DNA of 64,000 bases from Bacillota bacterium (GTDB lineage: Bacteria > Bacillota > Sulfobacillia > Sulfobacillales > JAIMBI01). Every line of letters starts with the position of its first letter. The first letter of the stretch is position 1. The notes below the pieces were generated by a model. The model was not told the DNA's origin, did no database searches, and saw only the letters and a list, made by a program, of their open reading frames with translations. The DNA lies in contig JAJZWV010000010.1 of NCBI GenBank assembly GCA_021846505.1, positions 1-64,000 on the forward strand, in the 5' to 3' direction. The translations under genes were made by a program, and so were the position numbers. Shown piece after piece: positions 34,904-46,613 of the stretch.

Positions 34904-37900
34904 CTAGGACAGTTCTCGGCGTAGTGTGGCCAAAGACTCGAAGACCGGGCCCCGGCTGAGCTCGTGATGAATAAACTGGTTGTCGTAAGTCCTAAGGCAG
35001 CCATAGCAGCTGGAATTATCGTCGCATCCACAATGGCCGGACAGGCGCTGGGTGGCGGCGGTCAACACGTCCAGCAGGACGGATGGGGACACCAGTTGGG
35101 AGACCAGACCCGCACCGCCGGGGACATTGTCTACCAACAGCACGCTCAACGGATCGGTCGAGAACACGAGGGCTGCCAGATCGGTGACCGGCACCTCCAG
35201 CACCTCGACCGCGCCCAACTGCAGGGCGTATGCCAGGCCATACGCTAGTGCCGCGGAGGGCAAGGCATCTTGACGAAGGTCCAAGCGCAACACGTGGGTG
35301 CGAAATTGGTGAGCCAGGGAGGTCGAGGGGAGGGGGTGACCGACGCACGGGCTCCCGAAGGGCGTCTTATGAGGGGACCGGATAGGCTTGGCATCGGCGA
35401 CCCCGCAGTCGGCACAGATGGAAAAGCCTTGGCCCCGCCGTCCCTCCGACACCATCATGATCGTGCCCGGACGAACATCGTAGGCCGTGAGGCGCGGGTC
35501 CTCGGGCGGGAGGTGGAGGGTCCGGGTCCATCCGCCGGGATTGGCCGCTTCCGCGAAATACGGTCGGCTGGAAAACAAGCGTTCGGGGCGTCGGTGGACA
35601 TCAGACGGTCGGGCCCGGTCGGTGCTAAACCCCCATTCGGGAATCAGATAGCGGCGCTCCCGGGCCGAGGCACAGCAGCGGTCTCGCGAAAATGCCCCCA
35701 GATGGTCGACCCGATCCAGCGTACCGTGGACGGGACAGGTCCGATAGCGTCCCTGGGGCCACACCCCTTGGGGACCCCGCTTGACCGCGGCTGAGGTCCA
35801 TAGCTTCTTGTTGGCGACGACCTGTGCGGAGGGCGCAAACTCCGAGATCGCCTGTGACAGGTCTCGTTGCAACACCACTTCCGCCGCCTCCGGCACGTCT
35901 GGCAACAGCTCTAACTCAACCAAGTCGACCGGGAAGCCGTATTTTGGAATCACCACATTGCGGGACAGCAACTCGATGAGGTTCTGCTTCTCCATGTGTT
36001 TGGCGCGCCGCTGTGCCCACCCAGCGTTTCCGTAATTGCCTTCGTCGCGACTTTTCATCTCATAACGGCGGGCTTGCCCCCATTCGTCCACGACCTGCGC
36101 GATGGTGTGGTGGAGCGGCCCATCCGGAGACAAGAAATCCGCCATCCATTTCGTGAGCGTTTCGTCGGACGGGCGAAGACTGGCCGGCACGACACGCACA
36201 AAGGCCTCCTGCCAGCGCCCGGCATCTCGCAGGGTAAACTCACCCAGCGAGTCCATCACCGTGGGCCGGTCCATCTCGCCCAGAAAGTTGATCACGGAGC
36301 CGAAGCGGTCGGCATGTCCGTGGCGGAAATACTCCGAGAGAACCAAGGCCGCCCAATGGCGGCGCACGATGACGTCGTTGTCGATATGAATCACCGGGGG
36401 ACGCGTGTGCCCGCTGATCATCCCCTCGGGGTGTTCAAAGTAATACAGGTCATGAGGCTGGCGGTTGCAATAGGTAATCGCCAGCCCGGGAAAACCGCGC
36501 CGCCGTCCGGCACGTCCCACGCGCTGGGCATAGTTATACTTCTCGGGCGGCACATTGCGCAGCAAAATAACGTCCAGTTCTCCGAGGTCCACGCCAACCT
36601 CAAAGGTGGTGGAACTGCTGAGGACGTTAATCGTCCCGTGCTTAAACGCGTTTTGAAACTCCAAGGCCTTTTCCCGGTTTAATTGCGCGGTGTGCGCTTC
36701 CACCCGGAGACTGGGGGGGAGGACTTGGAGGTGCAGCGCCCGGTAGTGATTCTGCTCGAGGATGGTGCCGTCCAGCGGACGAAGCATGCCCTGGCAGGTC
36801 CAGGTGGGGCACACGTCCGCCAGCGCCCAGCTGCTGATCCGATGGCAGGAGGGACATTGGCGGATGGCCGACGCGTACGGATCGTCCACCGCGGTCCAGC
36901 GCCACCAGGCCAAGTTCACTACATGACCGGGCGACTTTTCCCGTATCAGGCGATCTTCGGGGTTCCCTTGCCGCCGTTGTAGTTCGAGCGTGTGTTCCAA
37001 CAGGCGCCGGGTAAAGTCCGCGGCGGTCTCCACGTAATCGTGCCAGGCAGCCGGGGTCCCTGCGCTGGCGGCCAGCATTCGGGCCAGGACGCGCACCCGG
37101 TTGGACCGAGGGCCGTCGATCGCCACCGTCTTGCCGGCCTTCTCTCGATCGCCCACCACGAACGACTTGGACTCTGAGCCATGGCTGATATCCGCCCAGT
37201 CTACCCCCTCGGGGGCGTCTGAGGGTAAAGCGACCGCCTTCTGCGCGACTAGGGAGTGGAGGATCCACTGCATGGCCTCGCGCACCAAGGCAGCGCTTAG
37301 ATGGTACTCCGCGCCGATCTCGGTTGGGACGGTCCACCAGCTGGGCAGTTGGATGCGACCAACGATGAGGCCGGTCGCTTCCAGGCTACGGCCGTCCGAC
37401 GTGGCCAGCGCTTCTTTCAGGGCCGCCGTCCAGCCCAGCCGCTTCACGGTCGTCCGTGAACTCGACTCCGGCACCACGCCTTCTGTGCGTAGCAAGCCCG
37501 CCACCCCCAGGGCCGTGTCTTCCAGGGACGCCGGCTCCCCTTCCCGATTGAGTCTCGTCACGATGCGCCAAATCCGATTGCGCTCCACGATGGTGTCGTA
37601 CCAGTCGGACATGTACCACGCAAAGAAGGCGGCCCGCTGCCGGCTGTCGGCAAATGCCAGGATCCGGCGTCGGGATGCCGGCAGTTGCGCATGCAGGGCC
37701 GTCACGATCACCGCGTGGGGGGCATCGGCACCATGGAACAACTCTTGGATGACGTCCTCGCCACTTTGTTGGCATACCAGGCAGGTAAATTTACCCGCCT
37801 TGTCCGCCTCGACGAGGAGCAGTGGCATCCGGGCTTGATGTTCGCACCTATGCCGATCCCCCACCTCGCCGCACTGGGCGCACACCCATTGTCGGTAGGC

Positions 37901-39436
37901 GGGCGCGTCTTCAAACTCGTCCAGGTCCGTCTCGGACGTCGGCAAAAAAAACGTTTGGTGATAATCATCATGGGTGCGGTCGGTGATGGGTGGGAGAAAA
38001 TGGTCGCTGTCGACGCGGCCGGCCAGGTAATGCTGGCCGCAGTAGCGGCACAGCGCGAGCTCAAAGGGATATCCACTGGCCGGCGCAGCACTCCCGGTGA
38101 GATGGATCCGTGGAACCGATTCGAGTGTGACCCGCACGCCTTGAAGTGCCCGCAACAGGAAATGATAGCGCACGGATAGCAGGGGGGGTGCGTCCGGTGA
38201 TGGGGCCGCCGCCACGGCGCAATCCACCAGGTGTGCCAGCGCTTCTTCCTGGTCGCGGGCGTTAGCGACCGTGGGAAACACCAACGCTGCCAGCTTCGCG
38301 AAGGACAGCGGGCCCGCGGCTAAGGATTCCGCGAGATGCGTAAAGTTGGCGTCGTCGTCAAGACGCGTGGCCAGCTCCGTGGGGGTGCACGCGCCGCTTG
38401 CCAGGTGTCGAAGGGCGTCACCGTAGGTGTGCCAGTCGACGGCGGTGGTTCCCGTTACCACAGTCGGCTGCGAGTCGCCAAAGGTAACCTGGTCGTTGGA
38501 AAATGGCTCGTCAAACAACGAGGACGCAAAAGCCGCCACGGTGGTTCTCGATTCGGGCGAGGGCTCCCCCAGGGTGGCACTCGTGGCGATGCAGGTAAAC
38601 GGCGCCTGGCGGCCCCCCGTTCGCAGCCGGTCCTTGAGCCGTCGCATCAGGAGGGCCATTTCAATGCCCTTGGCACCCCGATATTGGTGGGCTTCGTCCA
38701 GAACCAAAAATTGCCAGAACTCTGAGCGGCCGTGGTCAAACAGCTCACTGTCCTCCGGCCGGATCAGCAGATACTCCAGCATCGAGTAGTTGGTGATGAG
38801 AATGTCGGGGGGGCTCTTCTGCATATCAGCGCGCGTCAAAAGCTCGCCCGGGTATCCGCCGTCTGGGGGAGGCGTGTCGTCTTTCGTGGCGCCGATGTAC
38901 TGGCCAAAGGTGAACTGAAATCCCGTGGGGTTTTGCTGCAGAATTTGCGCGACCTCACCCAACCGGTCGCGTTGGTCGGCCACCAACGCATTCATCGGAT
39001 ACAGCAGGAGAGCCCGGATGCCCGGTTGATGCCGAGCCGACTGCTTCCACTGCCGATACAGATGGATCAAAATGGGCAGCACAAATGCCTCGGTTTTTCC
39101 ACTGCCGGTGCCAGTGGCCACCACCACGCCGTCCCCGCGGGCCGTCGACCGGATGGCGTGTTCTTGGTGAGAATATAACGGCTGATCACCCCGAAGGGCC
39201 TTGAGAAACTGGTCGTCCCACGATTCGTGGGGATAAAGCTCTGCCAACAGCGTCCTCAGCGAAGCACCCTTGCTAAACTGCGGCGTGGACTCCAGGTACG
39301 GGCCGCGCGCCAACTTTTCTTCGGCGAGGGCCTCGGCGAAGGACTCGCGCAGTGCCTGGTTCCGGATGTAAAACGTGCTGCTCAGGTAGTTGTTGTACCG
39401 AGACTCCACTTCCCTCAACATATCAAGTATGTTCAT
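34904..39436 (-). CDS. DEAH helicase with DUF1998-type C-terminus (DruE/MrfA-like)
   Basis: 1510 residues; ATG 39436 is chosen because GCGAGG lies 7-8 nt upstream. An SF2 helicase: Walker A ATGTGSGKTEAF (K114), LYPMNALVADQRDRL (Ia), LDEAHQYRG (DEAH 247-250), TSATLG (286-290), then about 500 residues with several Cys clusters (CRYCG, CAQCG, CLVC) that look like zinc sites. The second RecA lobe has SSTTFEVGVDLGELD and QRVGRAGRRRGFPG near 970. The end has VDNVPGGAGLVSQL and CGCDDNSSCYGCLRTYDNQ, the DUF1998/MrfA zinc-binding signature. It is twice the length of MrfA repair helicases, as are DruE helicases of Druantia defence systems. Follows the zinc-finger protein gene after 23 bp, so both form one operon. 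Confidence 0.85.
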   Translation of the reverse strand: MNILDMLREVESRYNNYLSSTFYIRNQALRESFAEALAEEKLARGPYLESTPQFSKGASLRTLLAELYPHESWDDQFLKALRGDQPLYSHQEHAIRSTARGDGVVVATGTGSGKTEAFVLPILIHLYRQWKQSARHQPGIRALLLYPMNALVADQRDRLGEVAQILQQNPTGFQFTFGQYIGATKDDTPPPDGGYPGELLTRADMQKSPPDILITNYSMLEYLLIRPEDSELFDHGRSEFWQFLVLDEAHQYRGAKGIEMALLMRRLKDRLRTGGRQAPFTCIATSATLGEPSPESRTTVAAFASSLFDEPFSNDQVTFGDSQPTVVTGTTAVDWHTYGDALRHLASGACTPTELATRLDDDANFTHLAESLAAGPLSFAKLAALVFPTVANARDQEEALAHLVDCAVAAAPSPDAPPLLSVRYHFLLRALQGVRVTLESVPRIHLTGSAAPASGYPFELALCRYCGQHYLAGRVDSDHFLPPITDRTHDDYHQTFFLPTSETDLDEFEDAPAYRQWVCAQCGEVGDRHRCEHQARMPLLLVEADKAGKFTCLVCQQSGEDVIQELFHGADAPHAVIVTALHAQLPASRRRILAFADSRQRAAFFAWYMSDWYDTIVERNRIWRIVTRLNREGEPASLEDTALGVAGLLRTEGVVPESSSRTTVKRLGWTAALKEALATSDGRSLEATGLIVGRIQLPSWWTVPTEIGAEYHLSAALVREAMQWILHSLVAQKAVALPSDAPEGVDWADISHGSESKSFVVGDREKAGKTVAIDGPRSNRVRVLARMLAASAGTPAAWHDYVETAADFTRRLLEHTLELQRRQGNPEDRLIREKSPGHVVNLAWWRWTAVDDPYASAIRQCPSCHRISSWALADVCPTWTCQGMLRPLDGTILEQNHYRALHLQVLPPSLRVEAHTAQLNREKALEFQNAFKHGTINVLSSSTTFEVGVDLGELDVILLRNVPPEKYNYAQRVGRAGRRRGFPGLAITYCNRQPHDLYYFEHPEGMISGHTRPPVIHIDNDVIVRRHWAALVLSEYFRHGHADRFGSVINFLGEMDRPTVMDSLGEFTLRDAGRWQEAFVRVVPASLRPSDETLTKWMADFLSPDGPLHHTIAQVVDEWGQARRYEMKSRDEGNYGNAGWAQRRAKHMEKQNLIELLSRNVVIPKYGFPVDLVELELLPDVPEAAEVVLQRDLSQAISEFAPSAQVVANKKLWTSAAVKRGPQGVWPQGRYRTCPVHGTLDRVDHLGAFSRDRCCASARERRYLIPEWGFSTDRARPSDVHRRPERLFSSRPYFAEAANPGGWTRTLHLPPEDPRLTAYDVRPGTIMMVSEGRRGQGFSICADCGVADAKPIRSPHKTPFGSPCVGHPLPSTSLAHQFRTHVLRLDLRQDALPSAALAYGLAYALQLGAVEVLEVPVTDLAALVFSTDPLSVLLVDNVPGGAGLVSQLVSPSVLLDVLTAATQRLSGHCGCDDNSSCYGCLRTYDNQFIHHELSRGPVFESLATLRRELS

Positions 39437-39459
39437 GGAAAAACCTCGCTTTCGGTGAT

Positions 39460-42400
39460 TTAATCGAACACTATCCAGGACCCATGATGTTGTTGCTCGT
39501 GCTTGGACCATTGACCATCTGAAACAGCCATGACGATGTGGCATTCAAGGCACTGAATTAGAGGTGGTAAAATCAGATTAGCTATGGCGGCGATGTCGGC
39601 GACAGTGGCTAATATATTAAATGTCGGGGTGACGCCGGGACGCTCCACCTGATGGCCGTTCCAATGGGCCGACATGACCGAGGTGGGATTGATATAGGCG
39701 CTTCGCTCCGCGCGCACCACCATCGAACAAAGTCCACATACGTAAACCTTCTGGGGAAGATTGGGGACCATCTTCGCCTGCAGCGCCAACTGAAGATAGT
39801 CGTCGTATTTTATTGGCTGGTAGTATCGGACGGGATGCTCTTCCGCCACGTGACGCTCCAGCCCCGTCCGGTCGTTGGGGAACTTCGTCCCGCACTTGCC
39901 ACACCGATATTGCGGCACCAGACGTGCCACCGGCAGGACCTCGGGCGTGGCATGCGCGTCCGCGCGCACTGTCAGGGTGATCGAGAGCGCTTGACGCACA
40001 GTCCGGGTGTCCAGCGGGACCGCGGTGGCCAGGTTGCGGAGGGGAAACAATCCCCGGCCGTTTTTTAGGGGAACCGTTTTCGTGCTGGTCTCGCAAGCGA
40101 GCGCGACTTGGGTGGGCAAGGAGTCACGGCGCGACACCGATAGATACAGTACCTGGCGCGAGGTGGGTCGCGTGGCGGCCATCGTTATGTCCATCGCCGT
40201 CGTGGTCCACGCCAAATCGTCTTCCGGGGCGGTTTCGTCGGCCAGCGCCCAGACGGTTCTCGCGAGACGGACACCGAGATTCCGAACATGGTCGCGCCGG
40301 CCCGGGCCGCTAAAGGACCAGTGGGTCACGTCAAACTGGGGATGGAGCGGAATCTCCGCGACCAGCACGTTCTCGGCGACGGTCGCCAAAGACAGCGTGG
40401 GGTCGCTCGACGACACCGCCAACGCACCCGCGGTCACGAAACCGAGCTCACTCGTCCCCGACGGTTTCGTGATGGCGTCGATGCGGACCAAGTCGCGAAT
40501 CCAGAAAAACTCGTGGCTCTCCAACTCCACTTGCCGCTGGTCGTACACCCGGAGAAAGTACCAGCCCATGGCGGCCGGGGGCGTGGGCAGGTCGACTCGA
40601 CCGCCAGAAAACCATAAGTCCTCGCGCCAACGCCGGAGACCCCGGCCCTCCTGCCCCAGTACCAACTGCAACGGTTCATTAGTATCGCCCTCGACTGCGG
40701 GAAAGGCGCCAAGAAAAAGTGGCGCGCGGCCCTCGACCCCGCGGGCCCGCGTTCCCGATAGCGTGAGGTCGTACCGCGGGGGCACCGGACGATGTGCAAC
40801 CTGGTGGCCGGCTGCGTCGGTGATCGTAGCGGCTTTCCCTTCCGGCACCCAAAACGCCTGCCACCCGTCCAAGCCGAACAGGGGCTCTGGTTGCCCGCCC
40901 GATACCATCCCGCCATCGGCTACCACCACCACGTGATCGTGGCGATGACTTAAGGTTTTCACCATGGTGGCCGGTGACTGGTCCTGCTGCTTGGCCAGCC
41001 GAAAAATCATGGTTGCCTTCAGCGGGAGACCCCGCGGCACATGGTCCACTTCAACGGGATGGGCCGATTTCAAGATCCAATCGCCGCCCATGCGCATGAG
41101 GTCACGGTCCTGCTGGCGAACCCGGCGGGCACTGGTCGCCCGCAACAGCAGACGCCATCCGGTGCTGTACCGCTGGCACACAATAGCCGCGGGATCCTGT
41201 GGCGATCGAGGCCTGCCTGGAGAGGCCACGTGATACCGACCTCCCGGGCGCTTCTCCGGGGCCCGGGGTGCCCGCGGGTGAGGGGCCGTGCGTACGGCTG
41301 GAAATCGGCCCGTGTCGCCCAAACTCGCTTGAAGGCCCTCGGTCTCGACCAGCGTTGCTTTCCACCGTCTCCACTCGCGAATGGCGGCCAGCACATCTTG
41401 GCCGGTGGCTGTCGGGTCTGCCAGCAAGGCTGCGTCCACAGCCGCCGTCCGCAAGCGCTCGACTTTAGTCAAGCCGACCCGGTGGGCCGTCGCCAGGGAC
41501 ACGCCTTCCACCAAGGCGGCCACATCGGCCTGCAGAACGTCGGTCGGGGTCGGATAGTTCTCTAAAATCCAGAGGGCCGACTTGGTTCGCCAATCGCGAC
41601 AGACGGCCGTAAATCCCGGGAAGGATCGCGCCAGTAAGGATTTGATGTGTTGCTCCTGGTCGCGAACCCGTGCGGCGTCGCGGAGCCAGCGCTGGCTTAG
41701 GCGCACCGCTCGCTCAATCCGTTTGGCGGGCACTCCTCCCTCGTCACCCGGTGGGTGGTTCCGCAGCAGGGCCGCAAATGCGCCCGGCAACAGCGCGTTC
41801 AGGGAAGACGGTGGGGCGTGAGCGATGCTCGCGGCTTCGGTGTTCCATGGAAGATGAAGATACTGGAGAGCCGGCGGCTGGCCCTCTGTAGCCTGCGGGT
41901 CCCAAGACAGGCGGGCGGCATCGGTCCACATGAGGGCCAGCGAGGTTGCCGGTGCGACCCGCTGGAATCGCCGGAGACCTGCGAGGCTATTGCGAAAACG
42001 TACGGGCGTGCCTACGGGCTTCCCCGCACGGGAGTGCCATTGCACGAAAACGTGTCGCCGCGTCACCAGCGCGACCGCGGCGTGCCCCTGAACCGATGGC
42101 ACCTGCACGTCGGCCCGGTGACGCGTCGGGGGGGCAGACATCGGCAAGTGCAACAGTTGGCGAACCTTATCCGGCGGACGAAAGTCTCGGATTTGCCACT
42201 GGAAGAATACCGGGCACTCACGGTCGGGGTCATGACTGACGTAATCCAGCTGGCCCATATACAGATACGGGTCCGGACCGCGTACCCGGAGAAATAGGTA
42301 GATGTGGTGGCGGCTCGAGTCGTGACGGATCCAACGTTGAACCGCACTATCCGAAAGCCGCTGCCGCGGCTGCGACTGCCACGAGAGCACCCCCGCGTTC

Positions 42401-42597
42401 GTGATGGCTTCTTCGAACGCAAAGGAGCGGGGACCGCCGGCAAACGTGACGAAAAACACCCAATCGGATTCCGTGCGGGGCACGCGGACGACGCCATGAA
42501 GCCCCCAAGTCCCCGTCTGCGCTAGGAAGGGGCTTTCAGGGTCGAAGTGATCGTGGATTTGTTTACGCGAATACTCGGTGAATCTCACTAGATCCAT
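39460..42597 (-). CDS. Large zinc-finger protein paired with DUF1998 helicase (DruH-like candidate)
   Basis: 1045 residues; ATG 42597 has GAGGG 7 nt upstream. Regions seen: (1) about 1-145, a domain with SWQSQPRQR, SRHHIYLFLRVRG, PYLYMGQLDYVSHD and FFQWQIRDF, the spacing of DUF3427 domains; (2) about 311-400, FPGFTAVCRDWRTKSALWIL and NYPTPTDVL, which look like the mid-region of IS110-family transposases; (3) a long beta-rich middle; (4) three zinc-finger-like units near 897 (YRCGKCGTKF...H), 950 (VYVCGLC...H) and 1015 (CLECH...H). No enzyme motif is evident. Coupled with the helicase gene under one promoter. The two-gene layout and sizes match type III Druantia (druH-druE); this rests on memory of the architecture, not on an alignment. 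Confidence 0.7.
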   Translation of the reverse strand: MDLVRFTEYSRKQIHDHFDPESPFLAQTGTWGLHGVVRVPRTESDWVFFVTFAGGPRSFAFEEAITNAGVLSWQSQPRQRLSDSAVQRWIRHDSSRHHIYLFLRVRGPDPYLYMGQLDYVSHDPDRECPVFFQWQIRDFRPPDKVRQLLHLPMSAPPTRHRADVQVPSVQGHAAVALVTRRHVFVQWHSRAGKPVGTPVRFRNSLAGLRRFQRVAPATSLALMWTDAARLSWDPQATEGQPPALQYLHLPWNTEAASIAHAPPSSLNALLPGAFAALLRNHPPGDEGGVPAKRIERAVRLSQRWLRDAARVRDQEQHIKSLLARSFPGFTAVCRDWRTKSALWILENYPTPTDVLQADVAALVEGVSLATAHRVGLTKVERLRTAAVDAALLADPTATGQDVLAAIREWRRWKATLVETEGLQASLGDTGRFPAVRTAPHPRAPRAPEKRPGGRYHVASPGRPRSPQDPAAIVCQRYSTGWRLLLRATSARRVRQQDRDLMRMGGDWILKSAHPVEVDHVPRGLPLKATMIFRLAKQQDQSPATMVKTLSHRHDHVVVVADGGMVSGGQPEPLFGLDGWQAFWVPEGKAATITDAAGHQVAHRPVPPRYDLTLSGTRARGVEGRAPLFLGAFPAVEGDTNEPLQLVLGQEGRGLRRWREDLWFSGGRVDLPTPPAAMGWYFLRVYDQRQVELESHEFFWIRDLVRIDAITKPSGTSELGFVTAGALAVSSSDPTLSLATVAENVLVAEIPLHPQFDVTHWSFSGPGRRDHVRNLGVRLARTVWALADETAPEDDLAWTTTAMDITMAATRPTSRQVLYLSVSRRDSLPTQVALACETSTKTVPLKNGRGLFPLRNLATAVPLDTRTVRQALSITLTVRADAHATPEVLPVARLVPQYRCGKCGTKFPNDRTGLERHVAEEHPVRYYQPIKYDDYLQLALQAKMVPNLPQKVYVCGLCSMVVRAERSAYINPTSVMSAHWNGHQVERPGVTPTFNILATVADIAAIANLILPPLIQCLECHIVMAVSDGQWSKHEQQHHGSWIVFD

Positions 42598-42638: not shown

Positions 42639-42667
42639 AATGTACGATGGGCGATATTGGCTGTCAA
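42639..42667 (-). promoter_or_regulatory. Sigma-A promoter of the two-gene helicase operon
   Basis: On the minus strand TTGACA (42662-42667) and TACATT (42639-42644) are exactly 17 bp apart and lie 41 bp before the start codon. The -35 is a perfect consensus, so the operon appears to be expressed constitutively. The rest of 42598-42924 has no gene. Confidence 0.7.
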
Positions 42668-44416: not shown

Positions 44417-46111
44417 TTAGCCGTGCGGCGTCAGCGTGAGCGGAATGGCGATATGATGCGTCTTCCCTTGATAGATGTAGGTGAGCTGGGCGGTGAGGTG
44501 GCGGGGCACCGGAATCCACCCCTGTTGCAGCGCCGCCCACACAAAGGGGGACGCATTGATGGCGTAAATGCCCGGACCTGAGAGCGGCAGGCCCAGTCGG
44601 CCCCCTGACAGGGCATCGCTCCCCCCGAAAAGCGCGATGTGGACCCGCGTGGGCGCATACGCCCGCGCGTCGGTCAGGGGGCGCACCGTGGCGCCCGTGA
44701 GTAGCGTCTCAGCGGGAACCGGTGCGGGGACGGCAAGCCCGCCGTCCAGTCCCACGAACCCTCCTTGGCGCGGCAGTGGCGGCGGCGAGACCGCCGGTGG
44801 CGCCAGCGGCGACAGCTCCGCGGACACCGCCCAACCGTCGCGGTGGCCGGCCCAGGTGAGGCGCCCGGGGCCCGGCGGTGCCTGAAACGGCCCCAGCTGC
44901 ACCAGGCCGGTGCGGGTCGCGACGTAGGCAAATCGCGCCCCCACTTGGGCGGCGCCAACTCCCGCGAGGGCGAGCGCGGGCGCGGCCGTGCCGCTGGGTG
45001 ATAGGGTGGTCACAGCGCGGTGGCCTTGCAGCACCAGCGTGGCGCCGAGGCCCGCGAGCCCCAGCACCTGCTGGCGGGGGCCGTGCAGCGGCACCACCAG
45101 CCGGTCGCTGTTAATCGTATCCCAAGGGCGAATCACGATGCGGCCGCGGCGCATCCACACCAGCCCGCTGGGCGTGTTGGCGGCCCCGCTGTACCACCGC
45201 ATGGGATCGGGTGACGAGAGATACGGTGGAGACGCGACCCCGTTTGAGGGAAACGAGCTCAGCATGGCGACGCCGTGCGCGCCGCGCAGCACAAACCCAT
45301 CTAAGTTATCGGCATACTCCAGCCGCGCCGCGTTGCTGCCGTTGGCGGCCCGAAAGGCTGGCACCGCGACTTGGGTGACCGCTTGGCCGGTATCCTGATA
45401 GAAGTACAGCGTGGCGCGCGAGGGATCCCAAGTGACCACGAGCGGTGGCTGGCTGCCCAGCTGCGCCACGGCCAGCGCGCCGCTGCCGCCTTGGAGGCGC
45501 TTGTACGCCCCGCCCATGGAGTCGACGAGCCACGACGTGTTCGCATCGCTCACCAGCCACGACCCCTCGGGCAAGGGGCGCACCGTGAGCGCCGCCGCGC
45601 GGGGCAAGCGCCCCAAGGGAGTGTTGGCGGGAGTCGCGAGCGGCTGGCCTCCCGGGCCCAGCGCCTTGATCAGGACCTGGCCGGTCGTCCGACTGCGCAC
45701 GAGCAGCACGGTGCTGAGGGGCCCCCCCGCTTCGGCGGCGACAATCTGCCACCGGCGGGCCAGCTGGACCGTCCACAGCGGGCGGCCGAAGGGGCCCACT
45801 TGGTAGGCGGCAATGCGGTGGCCCTGGTAGACCAGCACCACGCCCGCGTGCAGGCTCACGTGCGCCTGGCCGGAAAAGCCCGGTGGCCAGGACACTTCCT
45901 CGGCCTGGGGCGACAGCACGCGCGCGGCGGGGGCGGAGCCCTGCAGCGCGTATGGCAGCGCCGCGAGGAGCAGCAGGGCCAAAAAGGCCGCGCCCACTGT
46001 GAACCGGCGGCGTCGCGCTGGGCGTGGGCGCTCTAACAGCAGCTGGGGATGGCGCCACTCGGGAAACCGCTCCCACAGCTCCTGCTGCAGACGCGCTTCA
46101 AACGGGTTCAT
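44417..46111 (-). CDS. Membrane-anchored extracytoplasmic protein, likely anti-sigma partner
   Basis: 564 residues. A short cytoplasmic N-terminus (about 1-35: MNPFEARLQQELWERFPEW) is followed by one membrane helix (VGAAFLALLLLAALPYAL) and about 500 residues outside, rich in beta strands with repeated W/Y and G-x-P turns (QAHVSLHAGVVLVYQGHRIAAYQ; LVWMRRGRIVIRPWD), suggesting a propeller-like fold. The gene is 28 bp downstream of an ECF sigma gene in the same direction, the usual place of an anti-sigma factor, but no zinc-binding ZAS motif (H-x3-C-x2-C) is present. If it restrains the sigma factor, its N-terminal 35 residues would have to do so. No closer homologue recognised. Confidence 0.65.
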   Translation of the reverse strand: MNPFEARLQQELWERFPEWRHPQLLLERPRPARRRRFTVGAAFLALLLLAALPYALQGSAPAARVLSPQAEEVSWPPGFSGQAHVSLHAGVVLVYQGHRIAAYQVGPFGRPLWTVQLARRWQIVAAEAGGPLSTVLLVRSRTTGQVLIKALGPGGQPLATPANTPLGRLPRAAALTVRPLPEGSWLVSDANTSWLVDSMGGAYKRLQGGSGALAVAQLGSQPPLVVTWDPSRATLYFYQDTGQAVTQVAVPAFRAANGSNAARLEYADNLDGFVLRGAHGVAMLSSFPSNGVASPPYLSSPDPMRWYSGAANTPSGLVWMRRGRIVIRPWDTINSDRLVVPLHGPRQQVLGLAGLGATLVLQGHRAVTTLSPSGTAAPALALAGVGAAQVGARFAYVATRTGLVQLGPFQAPPGPGRLTWAGHRDGWAVSAELSPLAPPAVSPPPLPRQGGFVGLDGGLAVPAPVPAETLLTGATVRPLTDARAYAPTRVHIALFGGSDALSGGRLGLPLSGPGIYAINASPFVWAALQQGWIPVPRHLTAQLTYIYQGKTHHIAIPLTLTPHG

Positions 46112-46139: not shown

Positions 46140-46613
46140 CTATTCCCCGGACCAGTCGGGCAATAGGGCTGCCAGCGCCGCCCGGCCCCGGCTGAGGCGG
46201 CTTTTCACCGTGCCGATCGGGACATGCAGCATGGCGGCCACTTCTTCGAGACTGAATCCGGCCCAGTGGTGGAGCATGAGAGCTTCGGACAGCTTAGGAC
46301 TCAAGCTTTGCACAGCCTGTAGCAGCTCGGCGGCGGCGAACCCCTCCTCGCGGCCCACCCCGGGCGGCATCTGGGCCATCGGCACCTCGCGCCGCCACGC
46401 GCGGCGCCGGGCTTGGCGCGTGCGCCAGATGGTGCGCTGCGCCAGCCAGGCCCAGGTCACCGGGCGCCCGCGCGCCAGCTGGCCGTGCGCGCTCCACAGC
46501 ACGTCCTGCACCACTTCTTCGGCGGTGGTGCGGTCGCGGAGCTGGGAGATGGCAACACCCAGGAGGCGGAAGCCATAGCGCTCCACCAGCAGCTCAAACC
46601 CTTCCCGACTCAT
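46140..46613 (-). CDS. ECF-type RNA polymerase sigma factor
   Basis: 157 residues. Region 2 (about 5-70) has VERYGFRLLGVAISQLRDRTTAEEVVQDVLWSAHGQL (in parts: FRLLGVAISQL; AEEVVQDVLWSAHGQL) and region 4 (about 100-150) has LSPKLSEALMLHHWAGFSLEEVAAML (in parts: LSEALMLHHWAG; SLEEVAAML) and IGTVKSRLSRGRAAL. It lacks an N-terminal regulatory domain, as ECF factors do. Co-transcribed with the membrane protein downstream, the presumed signal receiver. The target promoters are not identifiable from this window. Confidence 0.88.
   Translation of the reverse strand: MSREGFELLVERYGFRLLGVAISQLRDRTTAEEVVQDVLWSAHGQLARGRPVTWAWLAQRTIWRTRQARRRAWRREVPMAQMPPGVGREEGFAAAELLQAVQSLSPKLSEALMLHHWAGFSLEEVAAMLHVPIGTVKSRLSRGRAALAALLPDWSGE

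What the first reader, a model, noticed from the sequence alone, without database searches (positions are those of the whole stretch)
34904..42597. Two-gene helicase system resembling type III Druantia
Seen: one promoter (42639-42667) drives a 1045-residue protein with C-terminal zinc fingers, then after 23 bp a 1510-residue DEAH helicase ending in a DUF1998/MrfA-type cysteine signature. Known: Druantia defence systems share a large DUF1998 helicase (DruE), and their simplest form pairs it with one large unknown protein (DruH). Other defence systems (DISARM, Dpd) split these domains across more genes, which are absent here. Inference: this is a compact anti-phage system, possibly a divergent lineage.
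Basis: partly seen in the sequence, partly recalled or inferred. Interest (0 to 1): 0.78.

Follow-up and report, generated by a model that had tools for sequence, protein, structure and literature searches.

The report
Druantia-like pair with recycled transposase domain
Two neighbouring bacterial genes look like a compact virus-defence system: a DNA-unwinding motor of the Druantia family plus a partner protein assembled from a methylated-DNA-reading domain, a worn-out piece of a transposase, antibody-like folds and zinc fingers, a combination I found in only two genomes.

Summary
The helicase (P0001, 1510 aa) is a DruE-type YprA-family helicase with intact motifs, but it stops right after the DUF1998/MZB zinc cluster and so lacks the PLD nucleases of canonical Druantia III. 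It falls in a large clade of nuclease-less DruE-like helicases from many phyla, nearly all preceded by one large partner gene. That clade contains mycobacterial pairs whose motif numbering matches the M. smegmatis "type III Druantia", which was shown experimentally to block phage. The partner (P0002, 1045 aa) is not detectably DruH: canonical E. coli DruH hits ten PADLOC DruH models, while P0002 and its relatives hit none. P0002 is modular. It has an SRA-fold DUF3427 domain (SauUSI-like 5mC/5hmC reader, pocket residues conserved), a degenerate IS110 recombinase fragment (RuvC-like plus coiled coil, catalytic residues and Tnp domain lost), a tandem Ig-like core shared with 52 of 74 collected partners (P0002 included), and three zinc fingers. 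The SRA+IS110 front end occurs in only one other genome found (33% identical). Best reading: a modification-sensing, nuclease-less Druantia-like defence pair, i.e. a new variant of a known kind. Function is inferred, not shown.

The parts
42639..42667 (-). sigma70-like promoter of the operon (TTGACA-17-TACATT)
   Evidence: consensus scan 10/12, 0.3 expected by chance in the 900-bp region
39460..42597 (-). partner protein P0002, 1045 aa (modular sensor/adaptor)
   Evidence: homologue P0003 33-35% identical over full length in G035
42148..42582 (-). DUF3427 / SRA-fold target-recognition domain (aa ~6-150)
   Evidence: Pfam DUF3427 above cut-off; profile hits SauUSI 7clg residues 806-924 E 1.5e-4; Foldseek of the model: 7clg prob 1.00, SUVH5/6 SRA
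41698..42093 (-). degenerate IS110 RuvC-like (DEDD) part (aa ~169-300), catalytic tetrad not kept
   Evidence: IS110 HMM 73.7 bits on P0002 versus 4.1 bits for the best of 400 shuffles; hhalign 99.2%; Foldseek ISCro4/IS621
41302..41697 (-). IS110 coiled-coil part (aa ~301-432), best conserved of the transposase-derived segment; Tnp/Transposase_20 domain absent
39928..41208 (-). tandem Ig-like beta-sandwich core (aa ~464-890), conserved in 52 of 74 collected partner sequences, P0002 included
   Evidence: iterative HMM; AlphaFold pLDDT 81.5; Foldseek matches are tandem Ig-like proteins
39463..39927 (-). three CxxC...H..H zinc-finger motifs (aa ~891-1045)
   Evidence: motif scan, alignments A2/A7
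34904..39436 (-). DruE-like YprA-family DEAH helicase P0001, 1510 aa, no C-terminal nuclease
39092..39112 (-). Walker A GTGSGKT (aa 109-115)
38687..38698 (-). DEAH box (aa 247-250)
36503..36526 (-). motif VI QRVGRAGR (aa 971-978)
34994..35236 (-). MZB / DUF1998 zinc-binding domain (aa 1401-1481), then only 29 residues to the end
   Evidence: Pfam MZB 35.5 bits, cut-off 24.2

Best explanation
A two-gene anti-phage (anti-invader) operon of the nuclease-less DruE branch. Proposed mechanism: P0002 is the sensor/adaptor. Its N-terminal SRA-fold DUF3427 domain reads modified cytosine (5mC/5hmC-type) in incoming DNA. The dead IS110-derived RuvC-like/coiled-coil segment acts as a dimerisation and DNA-holding scaffold. 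The tandem Ig-like core and zinc fingers dock to and control the helicase. P0001 then loads on 3' single-stranded regions and translocates or unwinds 3'-5', blocking circularisation or replication of the invading DNA without cutting it. Shown by sequence or structure comparison here: the operon layout, DruE homology with intact motifs, loss of the nuclease, the SRA and IS110 homologies, the Ig-like core, and homology of the core to partners of many DruE-like helicases. Inferred from published relatives: anti-phage function, the sensor-effector split, 3'-5' unwinding, and block of circularisation and replication (PMC13316683, PMC13192584). Inferred only: modified-cytosine specificity, the role of the IS110 segment, and helicase docking by the core.
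For: PADLOC DruE1 541 and DruE3 462 bits on P0001. Tree: P0001 is sister to the helicase next to P0003 and lies in a clade of nuclease-less helicases (median tail after the MZB region 11 aa, versus 394 in E. coli DruE), apart from ARMADA and YprA outgroups. Partner-helicase gene pairs recur across phyla and 52 of 74 collected partner sequences (P0002 included) share the P0002 core. The M. angelicum helicase has Walker-A K119, SAT A292 and zinc-cluster C1516 at exactly the residue numbers whose mutation abolished defence in M. smegmatis DruE (PMC13316683). SRA: 7clg residues 806-924 by sequence and by fold. The SauUSI pocket residues F841, I842, W868 and the base-contacting D858 (PMC7913695) align to F49, V50, W73 and E63 of P0002, and these four are invariant in five homologues. 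The same domain is fused to an McrB-type AAA ATPase beside a PDDEXK_7 gene, and to NOV_C/DUF3883 nuclease-like domains. IS110: 73.7 and 65.5 bits for two 33%-identical proteins, shuffles at most 4.1 bits. Lower GC (60-66%) than flanks (mostly 66-71%) and absence from the three same-genus genomes fit a horizontally acquired module.
Against: No phage or transformation assay exists for this lineage. The flanking genes found (GNAT, Na+/H+ exchanger, MFS) are not a defence island. Two of the three nearest sampled relatives lack the SRA/IS110 front end: G012's partner starts with a short hydrophobic N-terminus and is interrupted by an IS, and G020's partner is fragmented. The SRA domain match to SauUSI is remote (14% identity by structure). 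The N-terminal model is low-confidence outside the SRA domain (mean pLDDT 51.7).
Confidence: 0.6

Rival explanations
1. A Druantia III-B system of the mycobacterial kind in which the Ig-like core senses a phage structural protein (as proposed for DruH) and the SRA and IS110 pieces are lineage decorations with no role in recognition.
For: The mycobacterial system is activated by a minor tail protein and the E. coli DruH Ig-like domains are the proposed sensor (PMC13316683, PMC13192584). The core is shared by most partners while N-termini vary.
Against: The SRA domain is the best-conserved part between P0002 and P0003 (53% versus 27-32% for the core) and its pocket residues are invariant, which argues it is in use.
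Confidence: 0.25
2. A DNA-repair or genome-maintenance helicase operon, not immunity.
For: YprA/MrfA helicases repair DNA; the neighbourhood found is not a defence island.
Against: The genome has a separate YprA. P0001 lies in the DruE-like clade. The gene pair is patchy (5 of 154 class genomes with any match at E<=1e-15) and of lower GC than its flanks.
Confidence: 0.08
3. A decayed locus: the IS110 segment is the scar of a transposon insertion and the system is dead.
For: The IS110 catalytic residues and Tnp domain are gone; relatives carry disrupted copies (G012 partner split by an IS200/IS605-type insertion, G020 partner fragmented).
Against: Both ORFs are intact with all helicase motifs; the same fusion exists in G035 at 33% identity, with the coiled-coil part at 40% identity, better than the core, so it has been kept for a long time.
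Confidence: 0.05

Closest known systems
Mycobacterial 'type III Druantia' (MSMEG_1253/1254; PMC13316683)
   Same: Two overlapping or adjacent genes, partner first; DruE-like helicase with no reported PLD domain; Ig-like core of the partner homologous through an HMM chain (L072, E 2.6e-121 in the final profile).
   Different: No SRA, IS110 or C-terminal CxxC..H..H fingers in the mycobacterial partner; overall identity very low.
Canonical Druantia type III, DruH-DruE (E. coli; PMC13192584)
   Same: Two-gene logic; homologous helicase; the partner contains tandem Ig-like domains in both.
   Different: No PLD nucleases; partner not detectably homologous to DruH.
Druantia III-B branch of the YprA family (Bell et al., PMC12458937)
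   Same: DruE-like, usually without a nuclease; a separate branch from III-A.
   Different: The main text read here describes the helicase only; an SRA/IS110-bearing partner is not mentioned. The representative GIH50614.1 could not be fetched for a direct test.
SauUSI and McrBC-type modification-dependent (type IV) restriction
   Same: DUF3427/SRA target-recognition domain coupled to an NTP-driven motor.
   Different: The motor is a separate YprA-family helicase and no nuclease was found.
IS110 family recombinases (IS621, ISCro4)
   Same: RuvC-like plus coiled-coil segment by sequence and fold.
   Different: DEDD residues and the Tnp serine domain are lost; fused inside a larger protein; no IS context and no bridge-RNA candidate found.

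Membership tests
Druantia type III (canonical, DruH + DruE) | DruE-family YprA-like helicase | tested here: met
   PADLOC DruE1 541, DruE3 462 bits; tree
Druantia type III (canonical, DruH + DruE) | C-terminal PLD nuclease domains on DruE | tested here: not met
   29 residues after MZB; no PLD Pfam match; E. coli DruE has a tail of 394 aa
Druantia type III (canonical, DruH + DruE) | DruH partner | tested here: not met
   No PADLOC DruH match for P0002 or 9+ relatives; E. coli DruH matches 10 models; core HMM on DruH -2.9 bits, hhalign probability 0.2
Druantia type III (canonical, DruH + DruE) | structural similarity of partner core to solved DruH (9tud) | not testable with these tools
   9tud is in the sequence set but absent from the listed Foldseek matches, whose library ends April 2026
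Nuclease-less Druantia III-B-like clade | helicase groups with nuclease-less DruE-like helicases; one large partner gene directly upstream | tested here: met
   the published III-B representative itself not available
Nuclease-less Druantia III-B-like clade | anti-phage activity | not tested
   known only for the distant mycobacterial relative (PMC13316683)
MrfA/YprA housekeeping repair helicase | groups with YprA, ~750-800 aa, no partner | tested here: not met
   1510 aa with partner; YprA of the same genome is elsewhere and is the outgroup in the tree
Type IV modification-dependent restriction | SRA/EVE-type reader domain | tested here: met
Type IV modification-dependent restriction | nuclease in the system | tested here: not met
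   no nuclease family match in either protein
IS110 recombinase | DEDD tetrad and Transposase_20 domain with catalytic serine | tested here: not met
   first Asp and the KxDxKDA motif lost, alignment ends before the Tnp domain
DISARM / Dpd / ARMADA | additional methyltransferase, BrxHII-like helicase or dpd genes | tested here: not met
   flanking genes scanned are GNAT, Na+/H+ exchanger, MFS and two-component genes

The most novel reading that the evidence does not exclude
The IS110-derived segment still works as a nucleic-acid (RNA- or junction-) binding module, so that an exapted recombinase directs or licenses a Druantia-type helicase, i.e. an RNA- or structure-guided, modification-gated helicase immune system.
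Probability: 0.07. Interest if true: 0.88.

Novelty: new variant of a known kind. Interest (0 to 1): 0.62.

Why it matters
It indicates that nuclease-less DruE helicases use a fast-changing, modular partner: one conserved Ig-like core with swappable front ends (membrane anchor, sigma70-like, SRA reader plus dead IS110). It links Druantia-type immunity to modification-dependent (type IV) restriction, gives a concrete test for what this orphan branch senses, and would be an example of IS110 recombinase material exapted into a defence protein. Two literature searches found no such case.

Tried and rejected
DruH homology (no support). RNA-guided reading: Rfam finds nothing in the window, and the Tnp domain that reads bridge RNA in IS621 (PMC11208158) is missing, so it is kept only as the novel case. 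The search for related loci with P0002 alone in genomes and with its alignment or the IS110 alignment in viral contigs found nothing. tblastn of P0002 against phages found nothing; tblastn of P0001 against plasmids gave only partial matches under 60% identity. An empty-site test failed because the GNAT and MFS genes lie on separate short contigs in related genomes. A whole-length alignment of partners misaligned the N-terminus, so the two halves were folded apart. M. smegmatis MSMEG_1253 itself could not be fetched; orthology rests on motif numbering (weak for the partner, 4 of 11 sites).

Full report
Observation. Both ORFs, the 23-bp gap, the promoter, the DEAH helicase and the zinc-finger tail are as described. 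The helicase carries all SF2 motifs and the MrfA-type zinc cluster.

Helicase. PADLOC's seven DruE models score 315-541 bits. In PDB sequences the two best relatives are 9tu7 (2108 aa, the DruE structure set of the type III work, inferred from length and from its accession next to DruH 9tud) and 9wae, ahead of MrfA/YprA 6znp. A tree of 81 helicases with the genome's own YprA and E. coli ARMADA II as outgroups puts P0001 beside the helicase of G035. Next come two order relatives, inside a wide clade of mostly nuclease-less helicases distinct from E. coli DruE III. Bell et al. describe exactly such a branch, 'Druantia III-like / III-B', most frequently without a nuclease (PMC12458937).

Gene pair. 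The 80 best loci from named genomes (Bacteroidota, Actinomycetota, Chloroflexota, Bacillota, Pseudomonadota, archaea and others) show, with few exceptions, one large partner gene directly upstream of a ~1550-aa helicase. Starting from P0002 aa 561-1045, an iterated profile recovers 52 of 74 collected partner sequences, P0002 included. This includes Mycobacterium (L072, L084). In M. angelicum the helicase has K119, A292 and C1516 at the very numbers mutated in M. smegmatis DruE with loss of defence, whereas E. coli DruE has motif VI about 128 residues further on. Hence the experimentally tested mycobacterial system (blocks circularisation and replication, partner and helicase interact; PMC13316683) belongs to this clade. 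This is an inference from numbering; the M. smegmatis proteins were not available.

Partner is not DruH. I fetched the Druantia III locus of E. coli ATCC 8739. Its DruH scores up to 2553 bits on PADLOC DruH models; P0002 and all relatives tried show no DruH match. Profile and profile-profile comparison to DruH are negative. A core model with pLDDT 81.5 is a string of beta-sandwiches whose best PDB matches are tandem Ig-like proteins. DruH too is reported to contain three Ig-like domains (PMC13192584), so a remote or convergent relation stays open.

Front end. aa 1-150 match DUF3427. A profile of five homologues finds SauUSI residues 806-924, its SRA-fold 5mC/5hmC reader (PMC7913695). Foldseek of the predicted fold gives SauUSI at probability 1.00, then SUVH5/6, UHRF1 and ScoMcrA SRA domains. 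The four SauUSI recognition positions F841, I842, D858 and W868 map to F49, V50, E63 and W73, invariant in the family. The same domain, 51% identical, sits in an McrB-like AAA protein next to a PDDEXK_7 gene in a relative, and 39-46% identical in DUF3427-NOV_C/DUF3883 proteins, one on a Priestia plasmid beside HNH and DndD genes.

IS110 segment. The search of related genomes matched aa 167-430 to multi-copy ~430-aa ORFs, which are IS110 transposases by Pfam. A profile made only from those gives 73.7 bits on P0002 and 65.5 on P0003; the best of 400 shuffles gives 4.1 and no other partner matches. hhalign gives 99.2%. The predicted structure, though of low confidence there, independently returns ISCro4 and IS621. 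The first catalytic Asp and the KxDxKDA motif are gone in both proteins and the Tnp domain is absent. The coiled-coil part is 40% identical between P0002 and P0003, better than the Ig-like core, which suggests selection. No third example was found in 154 genomes of the class, 300 of the phylum or the 80 named loci.

Context. Flanking genes found are GNAT, Na+/H+ exchanger, MFS and two-component genes. GC is 60-66% against mostly 66-71% around it. The three same-genus genomes lack it. It looks like a solitary, horizontally acquired module.

Conclusion. The pair is best read as a nuclease-less DruE-type defence system whose partner has acquired a modified-cytosine reader and a dead IS110 module. 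Homology and architecture are shown; defence, specificity and the role of the IS110 part are inferred.

Noticed in passing
L117:5932-10002 and L122:5776-9999 (Thermoanaerobaculia and Vicinamibacteraceae MAGs): The partner gene upstream of the DruE-like helicase begins with sigma70 regions 2-4 (and a region 1.2 match after region 4), fused in frame to the Ig-like core.
   Followed up: partly
L025/L049, L043, L046, L073, L028 (N-termini of partners): Several partners in this clade start with a strong hydrophobic segment (KD > 2.6), suggesting membrane-anchored versions instead of an SRA/IS110 front end.
   Followed up: partly
L026:10376-14545 (G012): The partner gene of a close relative is split by an element carrying a TnpB/IS605-OrfB-like gene and a short TnpA-like gene.
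   Followed up: no
L024:7523-11291 (G013): An McrBC-like pair whose McrB homologue has an EVE-like N-terminus followed by the same DUF3427/SRA domain as P0002 (51% identical).
   Followed up: partly
L135:3992-4990, L136:1-1002, L137 (Priestia megaterium pBMG4): DUF3427-SRA fused to NOV_C/DUF3883 nuclease-like domains on viral contigs and a plasmid; in pBMG4 it lies between a nuclease-domain gene, an HNH gene and DndD.
   Followed up: partly
L047:4706-8296: The 1197-aa partner from a Desulforudis MAG has a weak PADLOC LmuB match (E 4e-4) in its N-terminal part.
   Followed up: no
window 44417-46111, minus strand: A 564-aa ORF with no Pfam match lies directly downstream of a sigma70 region-4 gene (46140-46613).
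   Followed up: no
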